DNA from: a virus
Virus record (IMG/VR): IMGVR_UViG_3300049255_000352
Coordinates: 1-20,712 of that record
Length of the DNA stretch: 20,712 bases
Direction: 5' to 3' (one strand)
The notes beneath the pieces are model-generated. The model ran no database searches. It saw only the letters and a program-made list of their open reading frames with translations, and was not told where the DNA came from. Within the stretch, counting starts at the first letter, position 1; every line of letters begins with the position of its first letter. Below, piece after piece: positions 3,340-18,988 of this stretch. The position numbers and the translations under genes are program-made.

Positions 3340-3977
3340 GAGGCGACCCCTTGAAAAACTTGTGAATCGAACGGATTGCCGCCGCCGTAAGGCGAAATCA
3401 GGTCGTAATCGCTCCCCAGGCTGCCATAATTGGCGAGGTCGCCGTCGGCCAGCGGCCAGTGACAAAGGGGAGTGCCCGGCACGCTGGAACCGGCGATGAC
3501 GGTCGTCAGATCGTCGCCGACCAAGGCGGCATCGTAGACCACTAGTTCGCTGAGACTTCCCATGAAAAAGCCGCCGCCCAACATCCAGCCGCCGACGTAA
3601 ACCGACGTGCCGCTCACGACGGTGTTGAGGCCGGCATACAGCGAGGCGATCGGTTTGCGGTGCGACGTTCCGTTGGCATACATAACGACATTCGTGCCGT
3701 CAACGACCAGTACATATCGGTGATCGGCCCCGTCGATGCAGTCGAAATCGATCTGGTCGCCGTCGCCGAACTGCGTGTAATTCAAGTTCGACGAAGGGCT
3801 CATGCCCACGGCCATGACGAGCAATTTGCCATAGTTCGGCGTTCCATAACAAAAGCACACATTGCCTTGCGGCACGACCGCATTCATGGTGAAAGCGATC
3901 GTGCGTGGACTGCTGCCCGAGGGCAATGCGTCCGCTGGGGACTTCAGGATTTGGGAACCGGTGAAGGTGTAGGGCAT
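3336..3977 (-). CDS. LamG/concanavalin-like lectin-fold phage protein
   Basis: A 213-aa protein starting MPYTFTGSQILKSPADALPS. It reads like a LamG-type jelly roll: an early RTIAFTMNAVV strand, a central HRYVLVVDGTNVVMYANGTS (the usual W/Y-HH-V-DG-T-LYVNG pattern), VYVGGWMLGGGFFMGSLSEL VVYDAAL (the G-x-I-DE-V-IY-x-AL pattern) and a final LCHWPLADG segment. Such domains bind carbohydrate or act as structural sandwiches in capsid decorations and tail fibres. Placement among head-tail genes suggests a surface-exposed accessory protein. The stop overlaps the start of the next gene by ATGA. Confidence 0.75.
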   Translation of the reverse strand: MPYTFTGSQILKSPADALPSGSSPRTIAFTMNAVVPQGNVCFCYGTPNYGKLLVMAVGMSPSSNLNYTQFGDGDQIDFDCIDGADHRYVLVVDGTNVVMYANGTSHRKPIASLYAGLNTVVSGTSVYVGGWMLGGGFFMGSLSELVVYDAALVGDDLTTVIAGSSVPGTPLCHWPLADGDLANYGSLGSDYDLISPYGGGNPFDSQVFQGVAS

Positions 3978-3990
3978 CGTAGGAAAGAAT

Positions 3991-4080
3991 GTTCAATGTT
4001 CAAGGTGCAATGTTCAATGATTCGCAAGCGTTTGGTAAGCTGTCCAAGATTCTATTTGTTCATTGAACCTTGAACCTTGT
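3991..4080. repeat. Inverted TTCAATG/CATTGAA arrays
   Basis: GTTCAATGTTCAAGG and TGTTCAATG at 3991-4019 face GTTCATTGAACCTTGAACC at 4058-4076 in inverted orientation. The arrays fill the gap between the LamG-like gene and the upstream 147-aa gene. Confidence 0.85.
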
Positions 4081-4088
4081 AAATTTGG

Positions 4089-4532
4089 TCATTTAGCCGG
4101 TACACCGCTGCCGTCTGTGTTCCAGTTGATGGTCCACGCGGCCGGGTAGCAGGGTTGATAGCTGGACAGGAGCGTCGGATCGGGCACCGGCTGGCCCGCG
4201 GCGGCCGGTATCAACTGGATGCCGGGAATGTTGACCGGCGCGGCAAGCGAACGCGTGGCCGCGGCGCCATTCACGCCGGGTGTGACCACGAGTTTATCAT
4301 GCAGCCAGGTTTGCAGCAGGGCCTGGTTGAGCGCGGCGAAAACTTGGAATGCCGCTTGCAGGTCGGCGCCGAATGCGGCGGCCATGTTCAGCGGATCGGC
4401 CCAGAATTCGGCGTAGCTTGCGGTTTGCGATGCAGTGATCGCGGCCAATAGCCGGCCATTCGACTGCACCCGCGCCGCAACCGTGGCCTGCGCGGCTTGG
4501 GCGGGGGTGACGGTTTGTGATGCGATGCCCAT
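4089..4532 (-). CDS. Small phage structural protein, unknown family
   Basis: A 147-aa alanine-rich protein starting MGIASQTVTPAQAAQATVAA. The first hundred residues look helical (LLAAITASQTASYAEFWADP, DLQAAFQVFAALNQALLQTW). The C-terminal third is proline-rich and ends with an aromatic segment, AAWTINWNTDGSGVP. GGAG lies about ten bases upstream of the ATG. Position downstream of the capsid gene suggests a connector, decoration or neck protein, but nothing in the sequence identifies it. Confidence 0.65.
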   Translation of the reverse strand: MGIASQTVTPAQAAQATVAARVQSNGRLLAAITASQTASYAEFWADPLNMAAAFGADLQAAFQVFAALNQALLQTWLHDKLVVTPGVNGAAATRSLAAPVNIPGIQLIPAAAGQPVPDPTLLSSYQPCYPAAWTINWNTDGSGVPAK

Positions 4533-4572: not shown

Positions 4573-4693
4573 ACAAGGTTCAATGTTCAATGCGTGAAGG
4601 TTTGTATTTTCGGTCATGTTCGACGAGCAAGGCTCATCGAACGATGAGCCGAAGCTTGTCTCCGATCATTGAACCTTGTACATTGAACATTCA
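4573..4693. repeat. Inverted TTCAATG arrays enclosing a GC-rich hairpin
   Basis: ACAAGGTTCAATGTTCAATG at 4573-4592 is inverted relative to CATTGAACCTTGTACATTG at 4667-4685. Inside, GTTCGACGAGC at 4618-4628 and GCTCATCGAAC at 4632-4642 form an 11-bp stem with one mismatch and a three-base loop. The outer array reaches the TGA stop of the 68-aa gene. Confidence 0.85.
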
Positions 4694-4897
4694 TCCGTTA
4701 CTCACTTCCTCGAACGGCTCGGCCTGGGCGAGGAGTTTGTTGCACTCCGCGATCTGCTCGCGGAGCATCGTGGCGTAGTCGGTCCAGGTGTAGCTTTGAC
4801 CGTGAATGCTGTAGGTCGGTTTGGGAGATGCGAGAATCTCCGCAAGCGTTTCCGCCGCACGGTCGCGAGCCAAAGCGATGTTGTGTTGCCAGGGCAT
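4691..4897 (-). CDS. Small conserved-looking phage protein (68 aa)
   Basis: A 68-aa product starting MPWQHNIALARDRAAETLAE, with a polar SIHGQSYTWTDYATMLREQI segment and a C-terminal helix ending EPFEEVSNG. The good codon pattern, position in the head-tail operon and bounding by repeat arrays argue that it is real. Its helical hairpin layout would suit a small connector or chaperone, but the function is unknown. There is no convincing Shine-Dalgarno; a pyrimidine tract precedes the start. Confidence 0.6.
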   Translation of the reverse strand: MPWQHNIALARDRAAETLAEILASPKPTYSIHGQSYTWTDYATMLREQIAECNKLLAQAEPFEEVSNG

Positions 4898-5630: not shown

Positions 5631-5720
5631 GGACATTGTGGACAATGGACAACGGCGAACGGATATGCTAAGGCCCTCTGTCCGGTCATTGAACATTGAA
5701 CCTTGTACATTGAACATTCA
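5631..5720. repeat. Short-repeat array (GGACAATGGACAA and CATTGAACATTG units)
   Basis: GGACATTGTGGACAATGGAC at 5631-5650 is followed by CATTGAACATTGAACCTTG and TACATTGAACATTC at 5687-5719. The array fills the gap between the 147-aa gene and the end of the major capsid gene. Confidence 0.85.
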
Positions 5721-5725
5721 TCTAT

Positions 5726-7120
5726 TTATTCCATCTCTTGAAAATTGTTCCGCTGCAAAACGCGCGGGTTCCAGACCGACCAGGTGCCGCGTTCGCTGGC
5801 TTTGAAGCGCACGACCACGTCTTGCAGGAACTCGGCCTCGCTGTTGACCGGGGCCTGCGTAACGGTGATGGGCCAGTTCTCCTGGTACTTGATCGCTTCG
5901 GCAAAGTCGCCATAGAACCACAGCTTGTCGGCCGAGCCGTTGTCGGTGCCGCCGTAAAGCTGCTGCACCATCTGGGCCCGCAACTGCCGCGAGAGCTTGA
6001 AGTCGACCATGCCGACAGCCGACTTGATCGGGTTGGGGCTGTTGGTCAGCACCGCCCCGACGCTGTTGATGCCCTGCTGCGAGAGCTTCCAGATGTTGAC
6101 GGCTTCCAAAATCTGCGGCAGGTCGAAAGCGCGGGTGTGCGGGGCAAAGACCATCGGCTTGCCGACGACGATCGGCTCGCCCGTGCTGGGATCGACCGTC
6201 TTGGAGAAATACTGCTCGGCCAGTTTGAAGCTTGTGTAATCCGTGAGCGGATTGGCCGGCACGTCGTTGACGAACGGGAAAGGCCGCGTGGGATAGGCAT
6301 ACGACAACTGACCCGAGCCGCTGGTCGCGCCGGCCGCCTGATAGAGATCGATAGTGACCGGCGAGTTGTCGAACTGGCGAAATTCCGTGTACTGTGGGCC
6401 GAGACCTAGCAGCGTGCCGATGCCGCGCTTCTCTTTCCGCAGGCCAAGCACATAACCGACCTCGCCTGCCTGCCGCGCCACGAGGCCGGTGCGATCGGCG
6501 AAGATGGCCAAGCGCGTCACTGGAATGATCAGCCCGCGCGTGGCCGTCGCAGGCAGGTCGACATATTCCTGGCCGAAGCCGATGCTTTTATACGCCTGGC
6601 CTTCGGGCACGAGCGTCACGTCTTCATCGCCCGTGGGGTCGGGATCGGCCGGCAGGGCCACGCCGGGAATGCGTTCGCCGTCGACGAGGTTCGTGGGATA
6701 CTTGCCGGCGATCTGCGTAAAGACGAAGTCCTCGGCCGTGAAGCGGTTGAGCACGGCGTTGACGAGCAGTTGCCCGGTGATGCCCATGAACATCGAGTAG
6801 TCGACGGCGCCGATTGCGCCGCTTTCCAACATGCGGGCATGGCCGTTTTCATCGCGGAAGTACTCCTGTACGAAACCGTCGCCCACCGGCTGGCCGTCGC
6901 TGCGATTGCGGACGAGCGAGCCGAACATCTCGCGAATCGAGAAGTCTTCGAATTTCAGTTGCGGCCGCTTTCCTTCCAGCGGCCGGTTGTCTTCGCCCAA
7001 CCCCAAGGCTTCCTGGAGTTGGTGGAAGGTGGATGTGCCGCGCACGTCTTCGGTGCAGCGGACCGGCCGCCCCTCCGAAGCGATGCGGCGATAAAGGTCA
7101 CGGGCTTTGATGGCAGGCAT
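5726..7120 (-). CDS. Major capsid protein (HK97-fold-like)
   Basis: A 464-aa protein starting MPAIKARDLYRRIASEGRPV, with AAGGA about eight bases before the ATG. The order prohead protease, small decoration-like protein, this protein, and its size fit the HK97-type major capsid subunit. The early QLLVNAVLNRFTAEDFVFTQ region looks like an N-arm and E-loop. The centre carries VPEGQAYKSIGFGQEYVDLP, resembling the spine and P-domain strands. The C terminus has the typical FLQDVVVRFKASERGTWSVW pattern ending in a basic NPRVLQRN. It would form the icosahedral shell. It could in principle be a capsid-like relative of unusual family, but no other protein in the window fits better. Confidence 0.85.
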   Translation of the reverse strand: MPAIKARDLYRRIASEGRPVRCTEDVRGTSTFHQLQEALGLGEDNRPLEGKRPQLKFEDFSIREMFGSLVRNRSDGQPVGDGFVQEYFRDENGHARMLESGAIGAVDYSMFMGITGQLLVNAVLNRFTAEDFVFTQIAGKYPTNLVDGERIPGVALPADPDPTGDEDVTLVPEGQAYKSIGFGQEYVDLPATATRGLIIPVTRLAIFADRTGLVARQAGEVGYVLGLRKEKRGIGTLLGLGPQYTEFRQFDNSPVTIDLYQAAGATSGSGQLSYAYPTRPFPFVNDVPANPLTDYTSFKLAEQYFSKTVDPSTGEPIVVGKPMVFAPHTRAFDLPQILEAVNIWKLSQQGINSVGAVLTNSPNPIKSAVGMVDFKLSRQLRAQMVQQLYGGTDNGSADKLWFYGDFAEAIKYQENWPITVTQAPVNSEAEFLQDVVVRFKASERGTWSVWNPRVLQRNNFQEME

Positions 7121-7135
7121 GGAAAGTTCCTTAAA

Positions 7136-7224
7136 GTTTTCAGTTTTCAGTTTTCAGTTTTCAGTCACGGCAAGTTTTCGAATGTCCAGCTTTCATACTG
7201 AAAACTGAACACTGAAAACTTCAA
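7136..7224. repeat. Inverted TTTTCAG/CTGAAAA arrays
   Basis: Four consecutive TTTTCAG units at about 7137-7164 face ACTGAAAACTGAACACTGAA at 7197-7216 in inverted orientation. They occupy the gap upstream of the major capsid gene and could fold into a hairpin in the transcript. Confidence 0.9.
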
Positions 7225-7831: not shown

Positions 7832-8725
7832 TCATTTGAAAAGCGCACTCAGCGAATCGCGGTCGCTTGCGATTTCGCGAACGGCTTGAAATGGAGACGT
7901 TCCGGTGATGTTGATAGTGCTAGCGGACCGGTACAAGAGCTTCACGCGATCTTCGATCAATGCTCGACGTGCGGCTTCGTTGGGCGCGGACATGAGTTGC
8001 TGGCGGAAGGCTTCGCTGACAACGGTCGCGTCGTCGGCATTTAGACGAGCGGCCTTGAGCTCTTCAGCAATTGAGTTCGCCTTTGACTGTAAAGACTCTT
8101 TGAGCTTGAATTCGGCCAACTCCTGCCGCAGGGCTTCGAGCGATTCTTTGAGCGCCTGGTTCTCGACCGCCAGTTGGTCGCCGCCAGCTTCGAAGAGACC
8201 GCGCGTTGTGGCCGGGTTGGCCACCAGGTCGACCGAGTTGACCTTGAGGATTTCTTCCACGATCACCCGGCCGTCGCGGCGCGTGGTGCGGGCGTTGGCG
8301 TCGTGACTGAAACCGACATTCTGCGGGGCGTTTTCGGCGTCCCAACAAAGCTGCTCGGCCAAGTGATGCTTGGGGTTGAAGTGGAAGTCGGCATACAGGC
8401 CGTCGTCTCGCTGCACGACATTCTTGATGGCCCCGATCCGCTGCGCGTAGGAAACTTTCTGGCCTTCGTCGCGGTGGTCGATATTCACCTTGGCGCCTTC
8501 ATAGAGCGGCACGGCTTTGTTGAGTGCGGCGGGCGTATAGCTGCGTTTGTTGAGCGACTCCAGGCCCACGATCTTCACGCCGTGGATCACGCCCTGCGTG
8601 CGATCGACCCGCAGGGTTATGCCGGCGCTCGATGCATACTCGCGAAGCGTTTCGCCGCCGACTTCGACGGTGAGGTCTTGTGAAATGGGGACGGTTGTGG
8701 TTGATGTTGGATTCGTGATTGTCAT
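7832..8725 (-). CDS. Prohead maturation protease with C-terminal scaffold-like coiled coil
   Basis: From the ATG at 8725 the product is 297 aa (MTITNPTSTTTVPISQDLTV). The upstream in-frame start at 8902 adds a basic stretch encoded by repeat-containing DNA and is rejected. Residues about 45-200 resemble phage prohead proteases: an NKRSYTPAALNKAVPLYEGA segment, then NIDHRDE with a candidate catalytic His, then QNVGFSHDANA with a candidate Ser, then VNSVDLVANPATTRGLFEAG. The last third is highly charged and helical (ALKESLEALRQELAEFKLKE), like a scaffold domain removed during maturation. It would process the prohead built by the downstream capsid protein. The exact peptidase clan is not decided. 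Confidence 0.7.
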   Translation of the reverse strand: MTITNPTSTTTVPISQDLTVEVGGETLREYASSAGITLRVDRTQGVIHGVKIVGLESLNKRSYTPAALNKAVPLYEGAKVNIDHRDEGQKVSYAQRIGAIKNVVQRDDGLYADFHFNPKHHLAEQLCWDAENAPQNVGFSHDANARTTRRDGRVIVEEILKVNSVDLVANPATTRGLFEAGGDQLAVENQALKESLEALRQELAEFKLKESLQSKANSIAEELKAARLNADDATVVSEAFRQQLMSAPNEAARRALIEDRVKLLYRSASTINITGTSPFQAVREIASDRDSLSALFK

Positions 8726-8842
8726 CGTGTGCCTTTGCGGCTGGAGGTGTTGTTTATGTCTGGCATTTTGGGCTGGTAACGATATAGTACGCAAAAGTAA
8801 ATTTCTGGATCGAAAATCTTTAGGAAATTTTAAGCGCCGTGG

Positions 8843-8861
8843 CATGGGAATCTTGCCCATG
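8843..8861. repeat. Small inverted repeat CATGGG-N7-CCCATG
   Basis: Six-base perfect arms flank AATCTTG. It resembles a dispersed REP-like hairpin rather than a terminator, since no T-run follows on either strand. Confidence 0.6.
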
Positions 8862-8879
8862 ATTTCGTGACACCGGCAT

Positions 8880-8909
8880 TGTGCCATTGATCTTTGTGCC
8901 ATTGATCTT
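8880..8909. repeat. Perfect tandem 15-mer TGTGCCATTGATCTT
   Basis: Two identical head-to-tail copies (8880-8894 and 8895-8909) lie just upstream of the candidate plus-strand promoter. They may be a regulator binding site or simple slippage. Confidence 0.9.
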
Positions 8910-9580: not shown

Positions 9581-10438
9581 TCAATCGGCCGTCTGAAGTT
9601 CCACGCCGCCTTCCGGATTATTGGGAAGGTTATAGCAGTTCTGATTCAGCACTTTTGCCAAAATCTGGCTTTCCTTGTAGTTTTGGGTAACGATGTTCCT
9701 ATAGTCCTTGCCGTCGACTGCAATGATTGCATCGGCCAAGAGTTTGCAGCCCGTCTTGTAATTGAGCAAGATCGTGGGATCCTCGTTCGCTTCTCCAATA
9801 ACGCGCGAGAAGTCGTTAAGTTGCGGCGTTCGCTGCGCGTTGTCGAGCCCATCGATCGCCGCCTTGATCCGCAAGAATAGGTCGCGATTCTTTCTGAAGA
9901 ATCCATCCAGGTTGCATGCTTTCTTTGCGGACACACAAGTCGGCTTGTTCCAAACGAATGCAGAACTGCCAAGGCGTTTCAGCCCCGTCGTGCCCCAGTG
10001 ACATTCGGTTCCGTCTTCCAAAGGCGCATCACAATGGGCGTCAATGGCGCGGGAACCAAGTTTCAGGAGTCGTCGCAACGATGCCCGAGCCAAGCGAGTG
10101 CGATCTTCCTTCGATTCAGCCAGCGTATCCAAGAGAGTGAATGCCCAAGTCTTCTTCGCGACATGCTGGAAGTTCAAAACATGGTTGACGTGTTCGATAA
10201 CCGCGGCGACGTCGCCGAGTTCATTGAGCTTATTCAAACACCAGGCCGCCACAGACAATATATTATTGCCATATTCCAACCTGGAGTAGGTTGATGAACC
10301 TTTCCAATCGAATTGCCGCAGCAGCCAATTAAGGCGTGGCTTGACTGGCCCCTTGAGAAAGCAATAATGAACCGATGTATCGAGGAAAACCTCGGACGAT
10401 GCAGATTGATGATCTTCATTCAATTTCACGAAAGACAT
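9581..10438 (-). CDS. PIN-like nuclease with embedded four-Cys motif (module 2)
   Basis: A 285-aa protein starting MSFVKLNEDHQSASSEVFLD, with AGGGGG upstream of the ATG. It overlaps the small partner gene by 23 bases. PIN-like acidic positions are visible: D20 in FLDTSV, E55 in SRLEYGNN, D236 in LLADAIIAV and N253 in VTQNYKES, where classic PIN domains have a D/N. PIN domains are usually metal-dependent RNases. A central insertion carries C136, C146, C168 and C175, suggesting a zinc site, and is much longer than small VapC toxins. It is collinear with the PIN protein at 11422-12252, including AF160-161, N164, P166, C168, C175, F180 and R182-K183 at the same numbers. With the partner and ASCH genes it forms a three-gene unit. 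Confidence 0.75.
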   Translation of the reverse strand: MSFVKLNEDHQSASSEVFLDTSVHYCFLKGPVKPRLNWLLRQFDWKGSSTYSRLEYGNNILSVAAWCLNKLNELGDVAAVIEHVNHVLNFQHVAKKTWAFTLLDTLAESKEDRTRLARASLRRLLKLGSRAIDAHCDAPLEDGTECHWGTTGLKRLGSSAFVWNKPTCVSAKKACNLDGFFRKNRDLFLRIKAAIDGLDNAQRTPQLNDFSRVIGEANEDPTILLNYKTGCKLLADAIIAVDGKDYRNIVTQNYKESQILAKVLNQNCYNLPNNPEGGVELQTAD

Positions 10439-10835
10439 CGATACCCCCTCTGATCAATTCCTCCGTCAGGTCATTCGCGTTTTGATCGTCGATTTCCGGA
10501 TCGTCGAGCATTTGCTTGAGAACAGAATCAAGGGCCATGAATTGTTGTTCGGTTAGAGGCTCGCGATCATCGTGCAACGCTACCTTGAGTATCGCAATCA
10601 TTTCCTCGAATGCTTCGGATTGCGCGTCGTTTGCAAGATCCCAAAGAACACGGAGGTGATACTTGACCTCGGTTCGCGCGTTGCCTTGCGATATGGGGTC
10701 GTCGACCATTTCGCGGACAGTCGTTAGCGCTTCAATACAGCCCTGCAAACTGAGACGCCTGGCAGCGATACGATCGAAGAAGTTCGCGGAACCCCTCATA
10801 TTACGATAACGCCGGCTTGCTTTGGTTAAACTCAC
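10416..10835 (-). CDS. Small acidic partner of the PIN protein (module 2)
   Basis: The frame reaches a GTG at 10835 (139 aa), preceded by AAGGGTGG. An ATG at 10799, one base after the ASCH stop, would give 127 aa and tight coupling; I cannot decide between them. The protein is helical and acidic: LSLQGCIEALTTVREMVDDP, then FEEMIAILKVALHDD, then a C-terminal EIDDQNANDLTEELIRGGID and FREIE. This C-terminal half aligns by eye with the 203-aa partner at 12262-12873 (LK, I-D, E, G-x-D-x-FR). A small acidic protein translated just before and overlapping a PIN gene fits an antitoxin or regulatory subunit, but no DNA-binding motif is evident. Confidence 0.65.
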   Translation of the reverse strand: MSLTKASRRYRNMRGSANFFDRIAARRLSLQGCIEALTTVREMVDDPISQGNARTEVKYHLRVLWDLANDAQSEAFEEMIAILKVALHDDREPLTEQQFMALDSVLKQMLDDPEIDDQNANDLTEELIRGGIDVFREIE

Positions 10836-11283
10836 CGAGCGCCACCCTTATCCCCTCGCCATCCACCTCAAAAATCTTCTGCTGCCCGCGCATCGGCACT
10901 GGCCGGGCAAATGCAACCGGCTGACTGAGCAGAAAACAAACTGGCCCAATCGCTAGCGGATGCGAAAGCCTTTCGTCGGTCGTAGCGGCGTCTGGTGATA
11001 GCGAACAGCAATCGTCGAGATAGACCCTACCGACGATCGCGCCGTCGGACACTTCGTCCGGCGCCGTCACTCCCAAAGCTGCCAGCAAAGCTCGCGCGTC
11101 CTTGTCCCCTTTGCGACTCTCCGGCGATTTGGCCGCTGCATGAATCAGCAGCGGCCCGCGGTGCCGCGTCCGCCAGGATCGATTCTCGACCGGTTTGTGC
11201 CCATGGACGATTGCCCAAGCCCAGACGGGATAAACGACTAAAGCCTTCGGCTTAAACGGGCAATGGACAACGATCGGAAGCAT
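10801..11283 (-). CDS. ASCH-domain protein (module 2 leader gene)
   Basis: From the ATG at 11283 the product is 160 aa (MLPIVVHCPFKPKALVVYPV); the start at 11304 would add residues encoded by repeat DNA. The ASCH signature is clear: ALVVYPVWAWAIVHGHKPVE, then NRSWRTRHRGPLLIHAAA, then a DGAIVGRVYLDDCCSL strand and a second half ending in a IFEVDGEGIRVAL strand. ASCH domains have a PUA-like beta-barrel proposed to bind RNA; characterised members include ribonuclease and acetylcytidine amidohydrolase activities. Stand-alone ASCH genes are common in phages. Here the gene is followed with no gap by the partner and PIN genes, suggesting one transcript. Confidence 0.85.
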   Translation of the reverse strand: MLPIVVHCPFKPKALVVYPVWAWAIVHGHKPVENRSWRTRHRGPLLIHAAAKSPESRKGDKDARALLAALGVTAPDEVSDGAIVGRVYLDDCCSLSPDAATTDERLSHPLAIGPVCFLLSQPVAFARPVPMRGQQKIFEVDGEGIRVALGEFNQSKPALS

Positions 11284-11421
11284 TCTTATTTCCTCGTTGT
11301 CCATTGACCATTAACTGCTGTTTTGCTGCTAGTACAGAAATCGAAGGACATTGAAAATAGTGTGACGCACTCCAGCGCTGTATGCCGGGCGAAAGCCGTG
11401 CGTTACCTGATCGCTCTTGGA
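11284..11421. other. Short gap between modules with repeat remnant
   Basis: The ASCH-proximal part holds a single GTCCATTGACCATTAA remnant (11299-11314) of the window-wide repeat family. The rest shows a weak ACGCAC/GTGCGT inverted pair (11365-11403) around CCGGGCGAAAGCC and no gene. The module 2 promoter is presumably here but is not recognisable. Confidence 0.5.
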
Positions 11422-12252
11422 CTAGCCGTCTGCGTACTTAACGCGCTGAAATTCTAGGCCCGTGACTTCCGATACAACAGACCAGTCTCTCGCGTTCGTT
11501 GACAACGAATGAGTTGCGCCGCTGGCCACTCCCTCAAGGGCGATCAGCATATCACCTGCGCGGCGGCATTCTGAGTGCGAGAGCTTTGCGTCCTTGTCGA
11601 GAACCGATCGAAAGACCTCAATTGTACCTCTCAACTGTTGAGCATCCTCGGAATTCATCGCCTCGACTTTCGCTGCTACCGATTCGATTATCGGAGCGGC
11701 GGCTTTTCTGATAAACTCTTCGACCTTACAGAATTTGTTGCCCATCCTGCACTTTGGCAGATTTGGCTCAAAAGCAACCCCTTTTATCGCAGGGCGTTCT
11801 TTCGCCCTCGTGCATTGAATATCAAGCGTTTGAACCGAACCGACGCTGGCGCAAAACCAGTCGTACAGTCGAGGGATTTTTGTCGCGAGCAATAGTCGCG
11901 CCCGTTCTGCCAGCCGACGGTCTTTTTCTTCGGTTATGACGAACGAAGATTGGCCGGATATGCTGATAATATTATTGAATATATGGCCTCTCAGCTTGGC
12001 CTGCCGGTGGGATGATTCGGTCAACCTGTCTCGAACCTTGGTGTACAATCCCACACGTTTTAAAAAATCATGAATCGTAATGCATTCTTGAATTAAGGTG
12101 GCCTTAAACTCCAGCAGAGAAATCCCCGTAGAAATTACGAAATCGTAGGCCTGAAGTAGTTCTTCGATTGTCTTTCTGCGAGTCGCCATTTTGCAACGGT
12201 CGACCTGGATCGTTGTATCAAGAAGAGCAAGTTTTCGGGAAGTCGGTTCCAT
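11422..12252 (-). CDS. PIN-like nuclease with embedded four-Cys motif (module 1)
   Basis: A 276-aa protein starting MEPTSRKLALLDTTIQVDRC, nine bases after the partner stop. PIN-like positions are D12 in LALLDTT, E48 in SLLEFKA, D234 in RAGDMLIALEGV and N253 in HSLSTNARDW, the last being a recognisable PIN C-terminal motif. Four cysteines occur at 134, 147, 168 and 175. Between them and after them, AF160-161, N164, P166, F180 and R182-K183 match the PIN protein at 9581-10438 residue for residue. A preceding helix also aligns (EEKDRRLAERARLLL against SKEDRTRLARASLRRLL). It is predicted to cleave RNA with two metals, though this is a family inference. The local DNA is more AT-rich than the structural genes. 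Confidence 0.75.
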   Translation of the reverse strand: MEPTSRKLALLDTTIQVDRCKMATRRKTIEELLQAYDFVISTGISLLEFKATLIQECITIHDFLKRVGLYTKVRDRLTESSHRQAKLRGHIFNNIISISGQSSFVITEEKDRRLAERARLLLATKIPRLYDWFCASVGSVQTLDIQCTRAKERPAIKGVAFEPNLPKCRMGNKFCKVEEFIRKAAAPIIESVAAKVEAMNSEDAQQLRGTIEVFRSVLDKDAKLSHSECRRAGDMLIALEGVASGATHSLSTNARDWSVVSEVTGLEFQRVKYADG

Positions 12253-12261
12253 ATCACGGAA

Positions 12262-12873
12262 TCACTTGTCGATTTTTTCAATGCGGTACTCTGAGATGTA
12301 GTCGTCACCGGAGATAACGCCACGAAACTGATCGAGACCGCGCTCCTCGATCATGTCGTTGACTTCGTCGATAGTGTACTCGTCTATGTCTTTTCGGGCT
12401 TTAAGAACCGATACCGCCTGTTCGATCAAACGAACATGGTTGGGCGACCATACGACGTTATTTAGCTGCGCTTGAAGAATAACGGCGATCGTCTTAAGGC
12501 TTTCTCCGTGTCCAAATGGGCAGTCGTATAATTTTTCCAGCAGAGCTTGGATTTCAGCAATGTGACTTGCCGACTCTTCCTCTGGTAGAGTATCGTCAAT
12601 AATCAAGCTACCGAGGGCTTCAGTTTCTTCGTCTAGGCTTTGGCAGATTCGCTGGAGTTGCTTTTCGCCCATCTCGTCATGCCTTTTCGGAACATACTTT
12701 AACCCCCAGCCAAGCGCTTCGCGAGCCAACAGTCCTTGGGTGCTTACATAACCCATCGCTGCAGGTTTCGAAGGCACGTCAACGGAAGCCCCGGTAGTCG
12801 GGCTTAGCGTTTGAGTTTCGATCTGCCGGGTATTCACAGGGACAACAGTTGGAGTGTCAATTGGATCTGTCAT
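12262..12873 (-). CDS. Small acidic partner of the PIN protein (module 1)
   Basis: I choose the ATG at 12873, giving 203 aa (MTDPIDTPTVVPVNTRQIET); a TTG at 12882 is possible. It overlaps the upstream gene by 17 bases. The N-terminal 45 residues are polar and Thr/Pro-rich, probably disordered. The rest is helical: LLAREALGWGLKYVPKRHDE, a DEETEALGSLIIDDTLPEEE segment, then a C-terminal domain with ILQAQLNNVVWSPNHV, DIDEYTIDEVNDMIEERGLD and QFRGVI. That last region matches the 139-aa partner of module 2 in pattern and spacing. It is likely an antitoxin-like or bridging subunit for the PIN protein. No database family is recognised. Confidence 0.7.
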   Translation of the reverse strand: MTDPIDTPTVVPVNTRQIETQTLSPTTGASVDVPSKPAAMGYVSTQGLLAREALGWGLKYVPKRHDEMGEKQLQRICQSLDEETEALGSLIIDDTLPEEESASHIAEIQALLEKLYDCPFGHGESLKTIAVILQAQLNNVVWSPNHVRLIEQAVSVLKARKDIDEYTIDEVNDMIEERGLDQFRGVISGDDYISEYRIEKIDK

Positions 12874-13687
12874 GTTCACCAAACAGCCTTTCCATTCGTT
12901 TGTCTATGAAGTTCCTCAGGCTAACGGACCACGCGCCAGCGGCGGAGATAAAATCTTTTGTGGCGAAGGTCGTTCCGCTTAGCTCCGAATCAAATGCATA
13001 TTCTAGGTCAAACTGAATCGCTATTTCAGCCTGCTGTGAATGCTGCCGACGAATAGACCTAAGTTTTTCCAGCGAACCGTGATAACGCTCCGGAATCTGT
13101 TTTAGGCGCATCATAATCCGTTCGTCAAATTGCGGCTGCCTCTCTTGCTTGATAACCTTGGCATCCAGTCGCTTTCGTGCCTTAACGCGTCCCCTATTCC
13201 ATGTAACGTTTTCTTCAGCGACCATCGTTAAGGCCACGGACGAGGTTTTGCCACTTAGTTCTTGCATGATAGACTCGTCGAGAGAGCAAAGCTTAAGCCC
13301 TAACAAAACCTCATCGGCATCATCAGCGTTAGAAAAGCCGAGTTGGTAAATTGACCTCAATGTAGGTGTAAGGATCCGTTTGATTCCGAAGGTCGTTAAG
13401 AGAGTTTCGTAAATTCGGCATGTCTGGTCCAAAAAAATATCGAATGCCAAGAACTCGGTCTGCACGGTCTCCATACCGACGTAGTTGAACCGTGTTGACA
13501 TACCCAAGGCAAAGTTTCGCAGGTTTGCGCCGTTCGGATCGATTCCGCCGGGAAGCCATCCCTCCTGAAGTTTGTCCTCGAGCCTAATAATTGCCTCGCC
13601 GCACTTGTCCAGGTATCGATAGCCCTGATCGAAGCGAACATAAAAAGCATAATGAGTTGGGTTTAGGTCGGTAGTCCACTTACGCAT
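12857..13687 (-). CDS. Unrecognised protein, first gene of PIN module 1
   Basis: A 276-aa protein starting MRKWTTDLNPTHYAFYVRFD. I recognise no family. There is a conserved-looking N-terminal block (GYRYLDKCGEAIIRLEDKLQ) and a PNGANLRNFALGMSTRFNYV segment. A helical FLAFDIFLDQTCRIYETLLT region follows, then a basic middle (NRGRVKARKRLDAKVIKQER) and a C-terminal FISAAGAWSVSLRNFIDKRM. No transmembrane segment or nucleotide-binding motif is seen. The basic middle could bind nucleic acid, and the N-terminal helical region could be a sensor, both speculative. It occupies the place that the ASCH gene holds in module 2, so the two modules may share an effector pair but differ in the leading component. 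Confidence 0.7.
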   Translation of the reverse strand: MRKWTTDLNPTHYAFYVRFDQGYRYLDKCGEAIIRLEDKLQEGWLPGGIDPNGANLRNFALGMSTRFNYVGMETVQTEFLAFDIFLDQTCRIYETLLTTFGIKRILTPTLRSIYQLGFSNADDADEVLLGLKLCSLDESIMQELSGKTSSVALTMVAEENVTWNRGRVKARKRLDAKVIKQERQPQFDERIMMRLKQIPERYHGSLEKLRSIRRQHSQQAEIAIQFDLEYAFDSELSGTTFATKDFISAAGAWSVSLRNFIDKRMERLFGEHDRSN

Positions 13688-13855: not shown

Positions 13856-15034
13856 TCAATTGTCCATTAAACTGCGTTTGGTCGTCGCGAATCGTAACGC
13901 TTCCGCCCGCGGCATCGCCGGGCCAACGTAGCGGAACGACGCCGTGATGCGGCCGGCGCTAGTGGTTATTTTTGCATATTTGCCGGTGTTGTGAAAGGTC
14001 TTGTAGCGGGCGCTGGTGCATAGGCCGAGGTGCGTCCGCTGCCAGTTGGGAGATGCACTGCGATAATGGATCATGCCGGGGTGGCTGGTGACGGACGCGG
14101 CCCCTTTGCCTAGGCCGGTCCAGATCGACGCGCAAAACTCGCTGAGACGATTTCCGATTCCGAGCCCTTGATAATCTGGCAAGACCACCGTGCGATGTTC
14201 ACGCATGTCGGGGGCTCGTCCGCGGGACGACGGCATGCCGCTCAGCCAGGCCGAGAAGGCTACGGGCTGGCCGCGAAGAAAGGCGCAGAAGCATTGGGAG
14301 CTTTTGCTGATGGCCGTGTTCAGATAATGATGACGGCGGAAGATCGTCCAGGCATGGCGATGGACCGGAGCGATCTCGAACTTGATGGGCGGCCGCCGCC
14401 AAAGACGCCCCCTTGCCAGCACGCCGCTGGCTTCGCTGGTCGGCGTCATGTCGAGCACCCAATCGGGTTCAAGCCAATCGAGAATGTCGTAATGGCAAGT
14501 AATGGCCACGAACCGCCGGGTGAACTGGCCTTTGCGAATGGCCTTTGAAAGAGCCGCGCTGCCCATCTGGGCCACCGTGCGATCGACGACGCTCGTGAAC
14601 TCGTCGAAGGCCACGACCGGCCGATCGGTGAGCATCGCCCGGGCCAGGTCGCAACGGAAGCGTTCGCCGTTCGAAAGGACTGCATAGGGTTTGACCCATG
14701 ACGGCGGTGAACTGATGCCGACGCTGGTGAGCGACTGAACGATGCTCTTGATCGATAGTCCTGCGGGAAAGCCGTCGAGCATGGCCCGACCGGACGGCCA
14801 GCCGCGGCTTTTATAGAGTGCTTTGCCGAAGACCTTGCGGGCCACGGTACTCTTGCCGCTGCCGGATGGGCCCACGATGGCCCCGATCTGCCAATCCTCA
14901 TCCGCGCCGGGTACTTCCACGTGAAACTTGCTTCGGGCAGCTTTCTCGAGTTGCAGATCGAACATGCCGCGAACCTGATCGACGCGAAAGCTCGTGTAAA
15001 CGGGGCACTCGACTATAGCGTCAACAACCGGCAT
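13856..15034 (-). CDS. ABC-type ATPase fused to a GNAT acetyltransferase domain
   Basis: From the ATG at 15034 the product is 392 aa (MPVVDAIVECPVYTSFRVDQ). I prefer this start because it overlaps the 67-aa gene by 22 bases; the longer frame reads through that gene and a palindrome. The N-terminal ATPase has Walker A GPSGSGKST (55-63), an ABC signature-like LSNGE (120-124), Walker B VVAFDE (140-145) and an H-loop His181. The C-terminal half is GNAT-like, with HHYLN near 235 and the acetyl-CoA loop Q289-G-x-G-x-G294 in LPDYQGLGIGNRL. No membrane segment is present, so it is not a transporter. The last residues, LMDN, and the stop are encoded by intergenic repeat sequence. The role in a phage head operon is unknown; a modification or DNA/ribosome-acting ATPase is possible. 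Confidence 0.85.
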   Translation of the reverse strand: MPVVDAIVECPVYTSFRVDQVRGMFDLQLEKAARSKFHVEVPGADEDWQIGAIVGPSGSGKSTVARKVFGKALYKSRGWPSGRAMLDGFPAGLSIKSIVQSLTSVGISSPPSWVKPYAVLSNGERFRCDLARAMLTDRPVVAFDEFTSVVDRTVAQMGSAALSKAIRKGQFTRRFVAITCHYDILDWLEPDWVLDMTPTSEASGVLARGRLWRRPPIKFEIAPVHRHAWTIFRRHHYLNTAISKSSQCFCAFLRGQPVAFSAWLSGMPSSRGRAPDMREHRTVVLPDYQGLGIGNRLSEFCASIWTGLGKGAASVTSHPGMIHYRSASPNWQRTHLGLCTSARYKTFHNTGKYAKITTSAGRITASFRYVGPAMPRAEALRFATTKRSLMDN

Positions 15035-15219
15035 GATCGGCCCTCTTGTCGCATGCGTTCGTAGAGCGTCCTCTGGTCGGCCTCGTCCGTACATTCCACG
15101 ACGACGCTCCAACGCTCGGCGATTTTCGGACGCGCGATCAGCGCAGGCTCGGGCCGCCTTCGGCCGCGCGAGGCAGGTCGGTTTGGTTGGTGCTTCTTGT
15201 CGCGGGATGCTTTTGCCAT
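15013..15219 (-). CDS. Small basic protein overlapping the ABC-GNAT gene
   Basis: A 68-aa product starting MAKASRDKKHQPNRPASRGR. The first 28 residues are strongly basic and look disordered. The remainder is a compact-looking alpha/beta element, ERWSVVVECTDEADQRTLYE followed by a helix and a final CRLLTL strand. It overlaps the ATPase start by 22 bases, so translation is probably coupled and the two products probably act together. The same reading frame has no better alternative, and its codon pattern looks coding. Function unknown; a nucleic-acid-binding accessory subunit is a reasonable guess. Confidence 0.65.
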   Translation of the reverse strand: MAKASRDKKHQPNRPASRGRRRPEPALIARPKIAERWSVVVECTDEADQRTLYERMRQEGRSCRLLTL

Positions 15220-15241
15220 TTTCCCAATTTCCGAGGTGATT

Positions 15242-15408
15242 GTAGGGTGGGACCAGCGAGCCTCGGCGAGCGCCGGCCCACCATGGAGAGGCTTGAGGAA
15301 CCACAGTTTCCGCTGCGCCCTAGGACGCGAGCCTCAGAACTCAAGCCGCTTCCTGGTGGGCCGGCGCTACGGCTCGCTTCGCGATGGCCGTCGCTTGTCC
15401 CACCCTAC
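15242..15408. repeat. Long imperfect palindrome, copy C (GTAGGGTGGGAC family)
   Basis: Bounded by GTAGGGTGGGAC at 15242-15253 and GTCCCACCCTAC at 15397-15408, with internal GCCGGCCCACC/GTGGGCCGGC and TTGAGG/CTCAAG pairing. It lies between the portal stop and the small basic gene, so it is transcribed as a large hairpin at the end of the portal gene. Confidence 0.85.
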
Positions 15409-15420
15409 CATCTGAAAACT

Positions 15421-16911
15421 TCAGACTCCTTCGACCTTTATCTGCTGCTGCTCGCTCTCGGCGTCGAGATTGTTTCGTACCGACCACGACTTTCGGCTCA
15501 AGACTTTGTTGCCGGCCAGGATGGCGTCGGCTTGCGTGTCTTTCAGGCGGTCGCGGCTGATGATCAGCGGTGGCTCGGCGTCGATGTCGATCAGTTCGAG
15601 GACGTCCGAGGGCAGACGGTCTTTCTCGGCAGCCAGGTCCAATGCTCGTTTGAGGATGATCAAATCGTCGTCAATCATGGCCTGTTGCATCACCTGAAAC
15701 GTTTTCACGGCCGGGCCTTCGGCCACCATGGTGCTGGAGAAATTGGCGTTGCTGGCGTCGGCCGAGACCATGTACTCGGGCAACCCTATGGCGGCGGCCA
15801 CGGAACGCAGCTCGGCCTGGATGCTGGCCGCGATCTTGTCCACGTCGGTCTGGGCCGAGGGAAACTCGTAGGTCGTTTGATCGTTGGTGTCGAGTATCGC
15901 TGCCTGCGGGTAGCGATTGATCGTCGAAGGCATGCCGTCGCCTTGCGCGGGCTTGCCAGAAAGCAACGTTTTCACCGTCGATACGGTCGCGTTGACGTGC
16001 TTGCGGATGAGGGCGATCTTCGCGCGGAACTCGACCAGCGCGCCCATATTGCTCAGCGTGCGCAACGCCTGCCGGCAGCGGGTCATGACGAAGAAGGTCG
16101 TGGGCAGTCCGCGCGGGCTCGACATATCGACATTGGCCGTGCGGTGCAAGATTTCTTCGGGCGGGACAATCATCGCCCAACCGGCCGCGCCATCCATCCT
16201 GGACGGGCTATCGCCGCTGCCGGGAAAGGCCGAGCCCAGATAGTTCGCCGGGCGGATGTAATAGCCTTGCGGGTCTTCGTAATCGCCCGCGTATTGGATG
16301 CCGAACCACACGTCTTGCTCGGGGCCTTTGCTTGGCGGCGTTGCGACCAAGAGCGGCTCGACGAAGCGAACCCTGAGAATGCCATCGTCCGACTTATCGA
16401 AGAACCGCAGAAAGAACTCGCCGTCGCGTTCCAGGCGGCGGCGTCGCTCTGCCTGGCGAGCGCCCCAGCGGTTCACGCGGCAGAAGGCGTCAATCTCGCG
16501 TTTGGCGTCGCGCAAAACCTGTTTCATGTCTGGATCGCTGGCGTCGGCCTCGGGATCTTTGGGAACGACCTTGTACGCATGGCCAGTGCCGACCACGTGC
16601 GTGACGATGTTATGCTCCACGGCCAGCCAATAGGGATTGCGGATGGCAAAGGCCCTCGAATTGGCGCGAAGCTGCTTGAGTTCCGTCTCGTTGATGTACA
16701 CGGCGGCCGTTGAGCCAGGGTAGATGAAGGCCCGCGACTGGCCGGTAGCTTCGTCGAAGAGCATGCCGAAGTTGCTCGGCCCGTCGAAGGAAGATATCTC
16801 CGACAGATCGACCATGCGGCCGAACATATCGGCAGCTTCGGAGAGCGTTTCGAGCCGAGCCAGCGCGGTGCGGCGGGCGGCGTCGGAGTCGTGCGTTGTG
16901 GATTCGGTCAC
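15421..16911 (-). CDS. Phage portal protein
   Basis: A 496-aa protein with a GTG start at 16911 preceded by GAGG. The size and place directly downstream of the large terminase fit a lambda-B/SPP1-type portal. Recognisable portal features are the N-terminal RNPYWLAVEHNIVTHVVGTG (stem-like), RWGARQAERRRRLERDGEFF, the ILRVRFVEPLLVATPP wing, a PPEEILHR segment and the ATVSTVKTLL helix. The region AASIQAELRSVAAAIGLPEY to the following SNANFSSTM segment is the classic portal 'GlP..l.sd.s.aNyss' motif. Twelve copies form the DNA entry vertex and dock the terminase. Confidence 0.9.
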   Translation of the reverse strand: MTESTTHDSDAARRTALARLETLSEAADMFGRMVDLSEISSFDGPSNFGMLFDEATGQSRAFIYPGSTAAVYINETELKQLRANSRAFAIRNPYWLAVEHNIVTHVVGTGHAYKVVPKDPEADASDPDMKQVLRDAKREIDAFCRVNRWGARQAERRRRLERDGEFFLRFFDKSDDGILRVRFVEPLLVATPPSKGPEQDVWFGIQYAGDYEDPQGYYIRPANYLGSAFPGSGDSPSRMDGAAGWAMIVPPEEILHRTANVDMSSPRGLPTTFFVMTRCRQALRTLSNMGALVEFRAKIALIRKHVNATVSTVKTLLSGKPAQGDGMPSTINRYPQAAILDTNDQTTYEFPSAQTDVDKIAASIQAELRSVAAAIGLPEYMVSADASNANFSSTMVAEGPAVKTFQVMQQAMIDDDLIILKRALDLAAEKDRLPSDVLELIDIDAEPPLIISRDRLKDTQADAILAGNKVLSRKSWSVRNNLDAESEQQQIKVEGV

Positions 16912-16927
16912 GGTTAAGCCTCAAAGT

Positions 16928-17031
16928 GATAATGGATAATGGATAATGGATAATGAGGAGCGAGAGTGACGAGTAGATAAATGAAATGTAATGGTCTGGA
17001 AATTATCCATTATCAATTATCCATTATTCAT
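16928..17031. repeat. Inverted GATAATG/CATTATC arrays
   Basis: Four GATAATG units at 16928-16955 face AATTATCCATTATCAATTAT at 17001-17020 in inverted orientation. The distal array overlaps the terminase stop codon (TGA within AATGAATAATGG on the minus strand). Confidence 0.9.
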
Positions 17032-18402
17032 TCGAGCCCGCATTTCTCTCGCAACAGTCGCACCGCCATCTCGAGCGCGTCCGGACCGTCGTCGTGTTCG
17101 CCTAGGGGGAACTCTTCAAGCTGCCTGACCAAAAGTTTGGCACCGGGCGAGTCGGACTTGAAGCGGAGTTTGCGCTGTTGCAGATACGGGCTGAGTCGTT
17201 GAATGCGGACCCGCTTGCTGCAGCTTTCGGTGGTGATGCCTTCCACCGGCACAAGCAGGTTGCGGCGAGCGGCCGACGATGCGATCATAGCGAGCAACGC
17301 TTGGCCGCCAAACTCCTGTTCGATGCCCAAGTAATGCACGTTCCAGGCAACAGCCAGGTCCACGGCCAGGTCGGCGATGGTGATCGTATTGCGGTCGTTG
17401 GCCATGTCGGCGTCGCAATACAGGGTGCCGTCGAGCAGTTGCACCTTCACGAAGGCCGAATAGTCGCCGCTGTTGCCGCCTACGCCTTTGGAAGAATCGA
17501 CCGCAATCACTCGCTGGCCGCCGGGCAGCCATTCGTCGAACCAGATATGGGGGCCGAAACATCTCCGGCGGCCACTCCACGCCGCCTTCTTTACGAGGAT
17601 CGAGTGCGTACTGCGCGGCCCACCAGTAAGGCGACGCGGCCTGCTTCTTCAGGATCTCGACCGGCCACAAATCCGGCCACAAGGACTCGCTTTCACCGCG
17701 GCCGAGGAAGTCGAGTTCTTCCGACAAGGCCGGCAGCCGCAGCAGCGTCCAAGGCTCGCCGCGCTTTTCGCCCTCTTCCAAAATATGCCCTAGCAGGTCG
17801 TTGGAATGCCAGCGATAGCCGGTGACGATGATCCACCCCTCTGGCATGAGCCGGGTCATGAGCGTCGATTGCCACCATTGCCAGGCCGACGCGCGCTGCA
17901 CAGCCGAGAGGGCTGCGCGGGAATCTTTGAGAAGGTCGTCGGCAATGATGCCATGCGGATGGTGGCCGGTAAGCGGTCCGCCCATGCCCACCGCGCGCAC
18001 GCCGCCGGCATGCCCTGCCAGATGCCAGCGTGTGGCAGCCGCACGGCGCGGATCGACATCCACGCCGGAATGCTCCGGGCCATATTCTCGGCACAGGTCG
18101 CGAGCGATCTCGCTCGAATCGCGGGCCAGGTCCTTGCCATAGCTGACAATCTGCAAGACATGTTCCGGGTTATTGCCCAAGTACCACGAAGGATACCACT
18201 GGCTGATCTGCATCGTCTTGCCGTGGCCGGGCGGCTCCAGAACCATCAGCCGCTTGAGCCGACCGTCGGCCACGTTCCTCAAGTAGCAGTCGACCAAGCC
18301 AGCATGGCGATTAAGCGTCCAGCGGCCATAACTGCAAAGCTTAGCCCAAGCACCGGGGGTGGCGAAGCTGGGAAGTATTCCGTTGTTTTCGGCGTTAAAC
18401 AT
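17028..18402 (-). CDS. Terminase large subunit, interrupted by a one-base frameshift
   Basis: The ATP-dependent DNA packaging motor, about 457 aa if the frame is restored. The first frame (from ATG 18402) carries Walker A PPGHGKT (residues 57-63) and Walker B HGIIADD near residue 150. It loses sense after GVEWPPEMF near 17557. The nuclease half continues in another frame: GPHIWFDEWLPGGQRVIAVD, then GIEQEFGG and DDGPDALEMA, giving the catalytic D, E and D of the RNase H-like nuclease. The switch falls at a G5 run on the plus strand (17549-17553); removing one base restores EMFRPHIWFDEW. A sequencing error or a real inactivating mutation are the main explanations. Upstream 116-aa protein, downstream portal: normal packaging order except that no small terminase is seen. 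Confidence 0.85.
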
Positions 18403-18404
18403 AG

Positions 18405-18490
18405 TTCAGTTCGAAGTTTTCAGTTTTTAGTTTTCAGTCAGAGCGCGCGAAGCGTGTGCCTTCCCGTTGTCCATTGTCCATTGTCCATTC
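18405..18490. repeat. Mixed TTTTCAG and TTGTCCATTG repeat array
   Basis: GTTTTCAGTTTTTAGTTTTC at 18417-18436 is followed by TTGTCCATTGTCCATTGTCC at 18467-18486. It fills the gap between the terminase start and the 116-aa gene stop; the latter abuts the repeat directly. Confidence 0.85.
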
Positions 18491-18491
18491 G

Positions 18492-18842
18492 TTACGGCAT
18501 CCAACGTCGAAAGGCCGCGGTAATCAGGGCGCCGACGGCCAGCAGCAACACCGATTGCAACAGCGACAGGCTCCAAGTCTCGCGGCTCTTGATGCCGTCG
18601 AGCCGTTCGCCGTGGCTTTCCAGAGTGGCGTTGACATCGCGAAGTTGGCCCTTCAGTCCCGGCCGGTTGGGATCGCCGTCGATGCCGAAGACCTCGCAGC
18701 GGATGCCGGCCACTTCGCGGGCCACGCCCTTCTGGCGTTCCATATTCTGCCGCACCTCAAGGCGCAGGTTTTCCACCTTATGCGTCAGTTCCTTGACATC
18801 GCACGATAGTTCTTTGATGCAGTTGTTTTCTGTGTCGGTCAT
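18492..18842 (-). CDS. Coiled-coil protein with C-terminal TM segment (XhlA/holin-like)
   Basis: A 116-aa protein starting MTDTENNCIKELSCDVKELT. Residues about 5-45 form a heptad-rich coiled coil (ELTHKVENLRLEVRQNMERQ). A polar middle, with GIDGDPNRPGLKGQLRDVNA and a second coiled coil, precedes a single hydrophobic helix near residues 92-110 (LLQSVLLLAVGALITAAF) and a short basic tail. This layout matches XhlA/holin-associated small proteins and other phage membrane anchors. Location beside the terminase rather than with an endolysin leaves a lysis role uncertain. The ATG is directly preceded by the repeat AATTATCAATTAAC and has no Shine-Dalgarno. Confidence 0.65.
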   Translation of the reverse strand: MTDTENNCIKELSCDVKELTHKVENLRLEVRQNMERQKGVAREVAGIRCEVFGIDGDPNRPGLKGQLRDVNATLESHGERLDGIKSRETWSLSLLQSVLLLAVGALITAAFRRWMP

Positions 18843-18844
18843 GT

Positions 18845-18988
18845 TAATTGATAATTGATAATGGATAATGGATAATGAGAAGGCTGATAGCCGATCGTTG
18901 ATTTTTCATAAACGCGGAGATAATGAATAGCTGGTAATTGGGACAGATGTGCGTGAATTATCAATTATCCATTATCAATTATCCATTA
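18845..18988. repeat. Inverted GATAATTG/CAATTATC arrays, widely spaced
   Basis: TTGATAATTGATAATGGATA and neighbouring units at 18847-18877 face AATTATCAATTATCCATTAT at 18956-18975, with about 80 unrelated bases between. The right-hand array supplies the TAA stop of the thioredoxin-like gene. Confidence 0.9.

What the first reader, a model, noticed from the sequence alone, without database searches (positions are those of the whole stretch)
9581..12252. Two collinear PIN-like proteins sharing an embedded four-cysteine motif
The proteins at 9581-10438 and 11422-12252 have PIN-type acidic residues at D20/E55/D236/N253 and D12/E48/D234/N253. Cysteines fall at 136/146/168/175 and 134/147/168/175. 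AF160-161, N164, P166, F180 and R182-K183 fall at identical numbers in both. Such conservation between otherwise divergent proteins implies a distinct PIN family with a zinc-binding-like insertion, much larger than VapC toxins. I know no described family with this layout.
Basis: partly seen in the sequence, partly recalled or inferred. Interest (0 to 1): 0.85.

Follow-up and report, generated by a model that had tools for sequence, protein, structure and literature searches.

The report
Three-gene PIN-nuclease cassette in planctomycete phage
The two look-alike proteins are real members of an undescribed family of RNA-cutting (PIN-type) enzymes with a conserved four-cysteine insert; each is the last gene of a small mobile cassette found sporadically in planctomycete bacteria and their phages, probably a toxin-like or phage-defence module.

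Summary
Both ORFs are on the minus strand, and they are homologous. They are the last genes of two cassettes, the first being A-B-C: A 12857-13687 (distantly TIGR04255-like), B 12262-12882 (probably helical), C 11422-12252. The second lacks A: B' 10416-10835, C' 9581-10438. I found C in 23 further loci: 22 in planctomycete genomes (a few fragmentary or frame-broken) and one in a second virus contig. B lies next to C in every cellular locus with room for it. A is upstream in 16, and the A, B and C trees agree (r 0.92-0.94).

In 23 C proteins the PIN residues D20/E55/D236/N253 are conserved. Four cysteines, C146/C168/C175/C231 of C', are essentially invariant. PIN membership is supported by profile comparison (score 29.4 against at most 14.5 in 100 shuffles) and by Pfam PIN hits once the insert is removed. 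No library searched names A, B or C.

The two cassettes lie in different clades, so they were acquired separately. Best reading: a toxin-antitoxin-like or abortive-defence module, with C the RNase, B its partner and A an accessory or sensor. Function is inferred. The structure predictions failed (pLDDT 41-43).

The parts
12857..13687 (-). Gene A (276 aa), first gene of cassette 1; distant TIGR04255-like protein
   Evidence: Homologues directly upstream of B-C in 16 cellular loci; global hhalign to a TIGR04255 alignment P=6.5e-5, local P=0.0044
12262..12882 (-). Gene B (206 aa), cassette 1; low-complexity N-terminus, then an apparently helical domain; start overlaps the end of A
   Evidence: B precedes C in every cellular locus with room for it; alignment A8; no Pfam family
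11422..12252 (-).
11812..11814 (-). Codon of C147 of C (invariant Cys 1)
   Evidence: 23/23
11749..11751 (-). Codon of C168 of C (Cys 2)
   Evidence: 22/23
11728..11730 (-). Codon of C175 of C (invariant Cys 3)
   Evidence: 23/23
11566..11568 (-). Codon of C229 of C (invariant Cys 4, five residues before catalytic D234)
   Evidence: 23/23
10801..11304 (-). ASCH-domain gene between the two cassettes; phage backbone gene, also near ABC/GNAT genes in other phages
   Evidence: Pfam ASCH E=5.5e-4, phrog_3193 E=5.7e-31, 12 related loci
10416..10835 (-). Gene B' (139 aa, no long N-terminal extension), cassette 2; overlaps C'
   Evidence: HMM match to the B family E=4.9e-36
9581..10438 (-).
10001..10003 (-). 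Codon of C146 of C' (invariant Cys 1)
   Evidence: 23/23
9935..9937 (-). Codon of C168 of C' (Cys 2)
   Evidence: 22/23
9914..9916 (-). Codon of C175 of C' (invariant Cys 3)
   Evidence: 23/23
9746..9748 (-).
   Evidence: 23/23
9731..9733 (-). Codon of D236 of C' (PIN motif III)
   Evidence: 23/23

Best explanation
The two proteins are members (C and C') of an undescribed PIN-superfamily nuclease family. The PIN core is split by an insertion of roughly 100-130 residues. Three invariant Cys of the insertion plus a fourth just before catalytic motif III probably bind one structural metal (Zn, less likely Fe-S) and pin the insertion to the active site. C is the effector of a compact mobile cassette A-B-C. 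B, encoded just upstream of C and often overlapping it, is most likely the partner that folds or restrains C. A, a distant TIGR04255 relative lost at least three times, is most likely an accessory or sensor that stabilises B or recognises a trigger. When restraint is lifted, for example on infection by another phage, C would cleave RNA (tRNA or rRNA by analogy with VapC) and stop growth. The phage carries two such cassettes as cargo. Shown here: the family, the residue pattern, the conserved gene order, coevolution, purifying selection and mobility. Inferred: metal binding, RNase activity, antitoxin role of B, sensor role of A, and defence function.
For: Relatives in 8/392 sampled Planctomycetota, 5/75, 2/9 and 1/29 in three classes (a second hit in the last is an endonuclease III homologue), and 12/398 Planctomycetia. 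B accompanies C in every cellular locus with room for it, and A in 16. A was found in 10 of 398 Planctomycetia genomes, all among the 12 with C (P=2.7e-18). Distance matrices agree: r=0.92 B-C, 0.94 A-C, 0.93 A-B, each P=5e-4. pN/pS is 0.18-0.42 for all three genes. Conserved D/E/D/N and four Cys. PIN core vs PIN alignment hhalign P=2e-4, score 29.4 vs max 14.5 in 100 column shuffles; Pfam PIN_12 5.8e-4 and PIN 1.4e-3. The two window cassettes lie in different supported clades and the region is 49-54% GC against mostly 55-63% around it, fitting separate acquisition. Some loci have MazF, DNA-methyltransferase, integrase or phage-like neighbours.
Against: No structure: both AlphaFold runs used two sequences and failed. 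B has no recognisable antitoxin or DNA-binding domain. Most cassette loci have ordinary neighbours, so defence association is anecdotal. B-C without A persists under purifying selection (L170/L171), so A is not strictly needed. No toxicity, RNase or metal data exist. The TIGR04255 link is remote: 8% identity, P=6.5e-5 in global mode but only 0.0044 in local mode.
Confidence: 0.55

Rival explanations
1. [quoted passage not shown] coli (PMC13092281).
For: C is likewise a PIN domain whose motifs are split by a large insertion. Phage cargo location; DNA methyltransferase genes and a PADLOC candidate-defence gene lie near the L171 copy.
Against: Homology to DS-3 or DS-5 could not be tested: their sequences were not on hand. 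No C relative in 398 Pseudomonadota genomes or in the plasmid collection. The tight B-C pairing looks more like a TA.
Confidence: 0.25
2. A housekeeping or host-takeover RNA-processing module (for example tRNA or rRNA maturation, or degradation of host mRNA by the phage), not a TA or defence system.
For: PIN/NYN domains with zinc sites occur in RNA processing, e.g. PRORP (PMC5039416) and Nob1 (own knowledge). The cassette sits among phage head genes.
Against: Sporadic distribution (2-7% of genomes in the larger samples), copies from different clades in one genome, and mostly cellular locations argue against a housekeeping or phage-specific role.
Confidence: 0.15
3. Chance or convergent similarity: two unrelated ORFs, not a PIN family.
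For: Single-sequence Pfam, PDB and PADLOC searches gave nothing.
Against: A profile of the two recovered full-length relatives at E down to 2.3e-37 in independent genomes with the same gene order; PIN profile similarity.
Confidence: 0.01

Closest known systems
VapC / PIN domain (Pfam PF01850) of VapBC type II toxin-antitoxin systems
   Same: Order and kind of catalytic residues (D, E, D, N/D) and local profile similarity; small partner gene directly upstream
   Different: About 280 aa against about 130; large insertion with conserved Cys; partner B has no recognised VapB-type DNA-binding domain; third gene A
TIGR04255 family (sporadTIGR04255, NCBIfam, function unknown)
   Same: Gene A: collinear weak similarity over its length; similar size (about 260 aa); also sporadic in Planctomycetia (29/149 genomes)
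   Different: No member of A reaches the NCBIfam model; the TIGR04255 genes sampled lie without B or C nearby
Toxin-antitoxin-chaperone (TAC) modules, e.g. CmdTAC (PMC11618068) and M. tuberculosis TAC (PMC5105189)
   Same: Three-gene logic of toxin, partner and third protein
   Different: A shows no SecB similarity in Pfam; the chaperone-addiction tail of TAC antitoxins is C-terminal, whereas B varies at its N-terminus
DS-3 and DS-5 PIN defence systems of E. coli (PMC13092281)
   Same: PIN RNase as effector; in DS-3 the PIN domain is split between the ends of the protein
   Different: One- and two-protein systems; sequences not available for comparison here
PRORP (NYN metallonuclease with bipartite zinc-binding domain, PMC5039416)
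   Same: PIN-like nuclease combined with a Cys-rich metal-binding element made from separate sequence parts
   Different: NYN subgroup with PPR domain; zinc ligands lie on both sides of the nuclease, whereas here three lie inside it and one next to motif III

Membership tests
PIN-domain superfamily | Three to four acidic/polar catalytic positions in the PIN order (LDTS; E; D; T-x-N/D) | tested here: met
   23 sequences: D 21 (one E, one unassigned start), E 23, D 23, N 21 / D 2
PIN-domain superfamily | Sequence-profile similarity to PIN domains above chance | tested here: met
   hhalign score 29.4, P=2e-4; 100 column shuffles max 14.5. Pfam PIN_12 and PIN hits on core sequences
PIN-domain superfamily | PIN (Rossmann-like) fold | tested here: inconclusive
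   AlphaFold2 with 2-row alignments, pLDDT 41-43
Four-Cys metal site | Four invariant Cys in the family | tested here: met
   C146 23/23, C168 22/23, C175 23/23, C231 23/23; C136 only 4/23
Four-Cys metal site | Cys cluster in space around one metal ion | not testable with these tools
   No usable structure; needs a structure or metal analysis
VapBC type II toxin-antitoxin | Compact toxin of about 130 aa | tested here: not met
   Intact C is about 271-310 aa
VapBC type II toxin-antitoxin | Upstream antitoxin with a DNA-binding domain | tested here: not met
   B upstream, but no Pfam family of any kind recurs in 23 members
Toxin-antitoxin system (function) | C toxic alone and neutralised by B | not tested
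   Needs experiment
TAC (SecB-chaperone TA) | SecB-like third gene | tested here: not met
   No SecB match for A in Pfam; fold not tested
TIGR04255 | Match to the NCBIfam model | tested here: not met
   no A member matches
TIGR04255 | Remote profile-profile similarity | tested here: inconclusive
   Global P=6.5e-5, local P=0.0044; controls B or C against TIGR04255 P=0.15-0.5. The best A-profile hits among ORFs of 20 TIGR04255 loci are TIGR04255 genes, but at E=0.027-0.047
Known anti-phage defence systems (PADLOC 2023) | HMM match of A, B or C | tested here: not met
   nothing above background for the window's A, B, C

The most novel reading that the evidence does not exclude
A-B-C is a new tripartite immune or addiction system, found so far in Planctomycetota and rarely in phages, in which a metal-stapled split-PIN RNase is held by a helical partner and triggered through a TIGR04255-like sensor. 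It would give the TIGR04255 superfamily its first function.
Probability: 0.4. Interest if true: 0.78.

Novelty: new variant of a known kind. Interest (0 to 1): 0.62.

Why it matters
A recurrent three-gene system with a PIN nuclease, found in about 2-7% of the planctomycete genomes in the larger samples and unknown to the family libraries searched, is a concrete candidate for a new toxin-antitoxin or phage-defence type in a phylum whose immunity is little explored. It predicts four metal-binding cysteines and four catalytic residues that can be mutated one by one, and it offers a route to a function for the TIGR04255 superfamily.

Tried and rejected
Single-sequence pattern searches of viral contigs with both PINs, the capsid and the portal found no relatives; profile-derived patterns also failed. 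A hand-made DNA pattern for C-x3-GD-x-LIALE found one true relative, L242, among 13 hits. L179 (E=4.9e-26 in the iterated search) was rejected: it looks like an endonuclease III homologue with its own FeS cysteines, an iteration artefact. A tandem-duplication origin of the two cassettes was rejected (different clades). A as a SecB chaperone by sequence was rejected. A three-row alignment (A10) was misaligned around the first Cys and was not folded. The 86-aa ORF in front of C in L242 may be the end of B cut by an IS66-like gene, but the HMM match is weak (E=0.13).

Full report
What the window is. The 20,712-base window is an IMG/VR virus record with a tailed-phage head module: a terminase large subunit gene broken by a frameshift (17116-18402), portal (15421-16911), a probable protease (7832-8902) and a probable capsid (5726-7120) (the last two are only weakly identified). 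The ABC/GNAT gene at 13856-15304 has its closest genome relatives in Planctomycetota (up to 48-53% identity), so the host is probably a planctomycete. Between ABC/GNAT and the protease lies a region of 49-54% GC against mostly 55-63% elsewhere.

Check of the observation. Both ORFs are real, on the minus strand. They match each other at E=6.7e-4 in a whole-record search and align end to end at 22% identity. None of Pfam, PADLOC, PHROGs or the PDB gave a meaningful match to either.

Finding the family. A two-row profile searched in 392 Planctomycetota genomes gave relatives in 8, down to E=2.3e-37. With a ten-row profile it was found in 5/75 and 2/9 genomes of two classes, 2/29 of a third (one of these two is the endonuclease III false positive), 12/398 Planctomycetia and 0/398 Pseudomonadota; these samples overlap. 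A translated search of phage and plasmid collections with several members found nothing. A degenerate DNA pattern found a second virus contig, L242, with C at E=6.9e-38 upstream of terminase-like and portal-like genes. The negative searches outside Planctomycetota are limited and do not show absence.

The cassette. In the relatives C is the last gene of a unit A-B-C. Iterated HMM searches of the fetched loci found C in 22 near-full-length copies including both in the window (one, L173, with an unassigned start), plus a fragment at a contig end (L178) and a frame-broken copy (L177); B next to C in every cellular locus with room for it; and A upstream in 16 cellular loci plus window cassette 1. 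In the window: A 12857-13687, B 12262-12882, C 11422-12252, then an ASCH phage gene (10801-11304), then B' 10416-10835 and C' 9581-10438 without A. No trace of A was detected upstream of B'. A-less units arose at least three times: the L170/L171 pair, L176 and window cassette 2; L133 cannot be judged because its contig ends there. In genome G664 a truncated A (L253) and the B-C pair of L176 lie on different contigs, each next to a copy of the same 98-99% identical element, so there A was apparently split off by a rearrangement.

The genes travel and evolve together. Distance matrices correlate at 0.92 (B-C, n=22), 0.94 (A-C, n=17) and 0.93 (A-B), permutation P=5e-4 each. These correlations partly reflect shared descent, which is what a travelling unit predicts. 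In 398 Planctomycetia genomes A was found in 10, all among the 12 with C (P=2.7e-18). pN/pS is 0.18-0.42 for A, B and C, also in the A-less pair L170/L171. The two window cassettes lie in different supported clades (100/100 and 96/95), as do the two copies within G553 and within G664. This is a mobile unit acquired repeatedly, not a local duplication. Neighbours vary; some copies lie near a MazF gene (L135), DNA methyltransferases and a PADLOC candidate-defence gene (L171), a phage integrase (L175) or a Zot-containing phage-like region (L137), but most do not.

The nuclease. In 23 C sequences (mean pairwise identity 27%) the almost invariant positions are the PIN residues and four cysteines: D20 (21 of 23; one E, one unassigned start), T21, E55 (23), C146 (23), C168 (22), C175 (23), C231 (23), D236 (23), N253 (21 N, 2 D), plus L121. 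With the insertion removed, the core matches PF16289 PIN_12 at 5.8e-4 and PF01850 PIN at 1.4e-3 in individual members. Profile comparison with 27 PIN domains from planctomycete genomes gives score 29.4, P=2e-4, against a maximum of 14.5 in 100 column shuffles and 10-14 for three unrelated profiles. The confident part covers motifs I and II; in the extended alignment D236 and the T-x-N stretch also fall opposite motifs III and IV. Three Cys lie in the insertion and the fourth five residues before motif III, which suggests a metal site fastening the insertion beside the active site. That is an inference.

Partners. A has no curated family. Its profile matches TIGR04255, a family of unknown function, at P=6.5e-5 over the full length in global mode, but only P=0.0044 in local mode; controls with B or C against TIGR04255 gave 0.15-0.5. 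I call this probable, not proven. B has a variable low-complexity N-terminus and an apparently helical C-terminal part with an LW-x-x-R-like motif in many members, and no family.

Mechanism. Most likely C is a PIN RNase effector, B its folding or inhibitory partner and A an accessory that stabilises the pair or senses a trigger. The logic resembles TA and TAC systems (PMC11618068, PMC5105189), but membership in VapBC and TAC fails on tested features (toxin size, antitoxin type, no SecB match), so I do not file it there. PIN-based non-TA defence systems are the main rival (DS-3, with the PIN domain split between the protein's ends, and DS-5; PMC13092281).

Novelty. The PIN fold class and TA-like operons are known. 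This family, its four-Cys arrangement and the A-B-C composition were not found in any library searched here, nor in the papers I could search. I rate it a new variant of a known kind.

Noticed in passing
L181-L199 (e.g. L192:1041-1481 minus, downstream of TIGR04255 at 1495-2259): TIGR04255 genes of several Planctomycetia are followed by a conserved ~150-aa gene (motifs WDGFGA, PS(I/F)GAEPDG, HYA(A/G)LFG), seen in L185, L187, L189, L191, L192 and, more diverged, L188, L195 and L199: a possible partner pair, perhaps distantly comparable to the A-B pair here.
   Followed up: no
window intergenic regions, e.g. 1705-1805, 2578-2675, 4058-4089, 4664-4695, 5691-5722, 7134-7172, 16918-17041, 18400-18498, 18840-18996: Short heptamer-like repeats (ATTGAACATTGAACC, TTGATAATGGACAA, AGTTTTC) occupy many intergenic gaps of the phage genome.
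   Followed up: no
window 17116-18402 and 17028-17510 (minus): The terminase large subunit reading frame is broken by a frameshift near 17500: decay or sequencing error.
   Followed up: no
L003, L004, L005 and window 13856-15304 with 10801-11304: An ABC-ATPase/GNAT fusion gene (phrog_11143) and an ASCH gene (phrog_3193) recur near each other in phages with unrelated head genes, often with small variable genes between them: a possible cargo hotspot.
   Followed up: partly
L167:19-236 and 3249-3466: The A-B-C cassette of L167 is flanked by a 218-bp, 97% identical direct repeat of the 5' end of carB, as if it had inserted at or duplicated the start of carB. L169 also has flanking repeats.
   Followed up: partly
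L176:9516-10219, 11595-12365 and L253:2146-3624: Near-identical element copies lie next to the A-less B-C unit and a truncated lone A in the same genome (G664), apparently having split one cassette.
   Followed up: yes
L171:1437-6561 against L170: Two related genomes share the locus with B-C, but L171 has extra genes (C5-DNA methyltransferase, a 373-aa protein, a trypsin-like gene matching PADLOC PDC-S45) between C and a D12 DNA methyltransferase: a variable defence-like spot.
   Followed up: partly
L135:2636-4191 and L176:3383-4797: ParA-like ATPase genes with a small companion gene lie near the cassette in two unrelated genomes.
   Followed up: no
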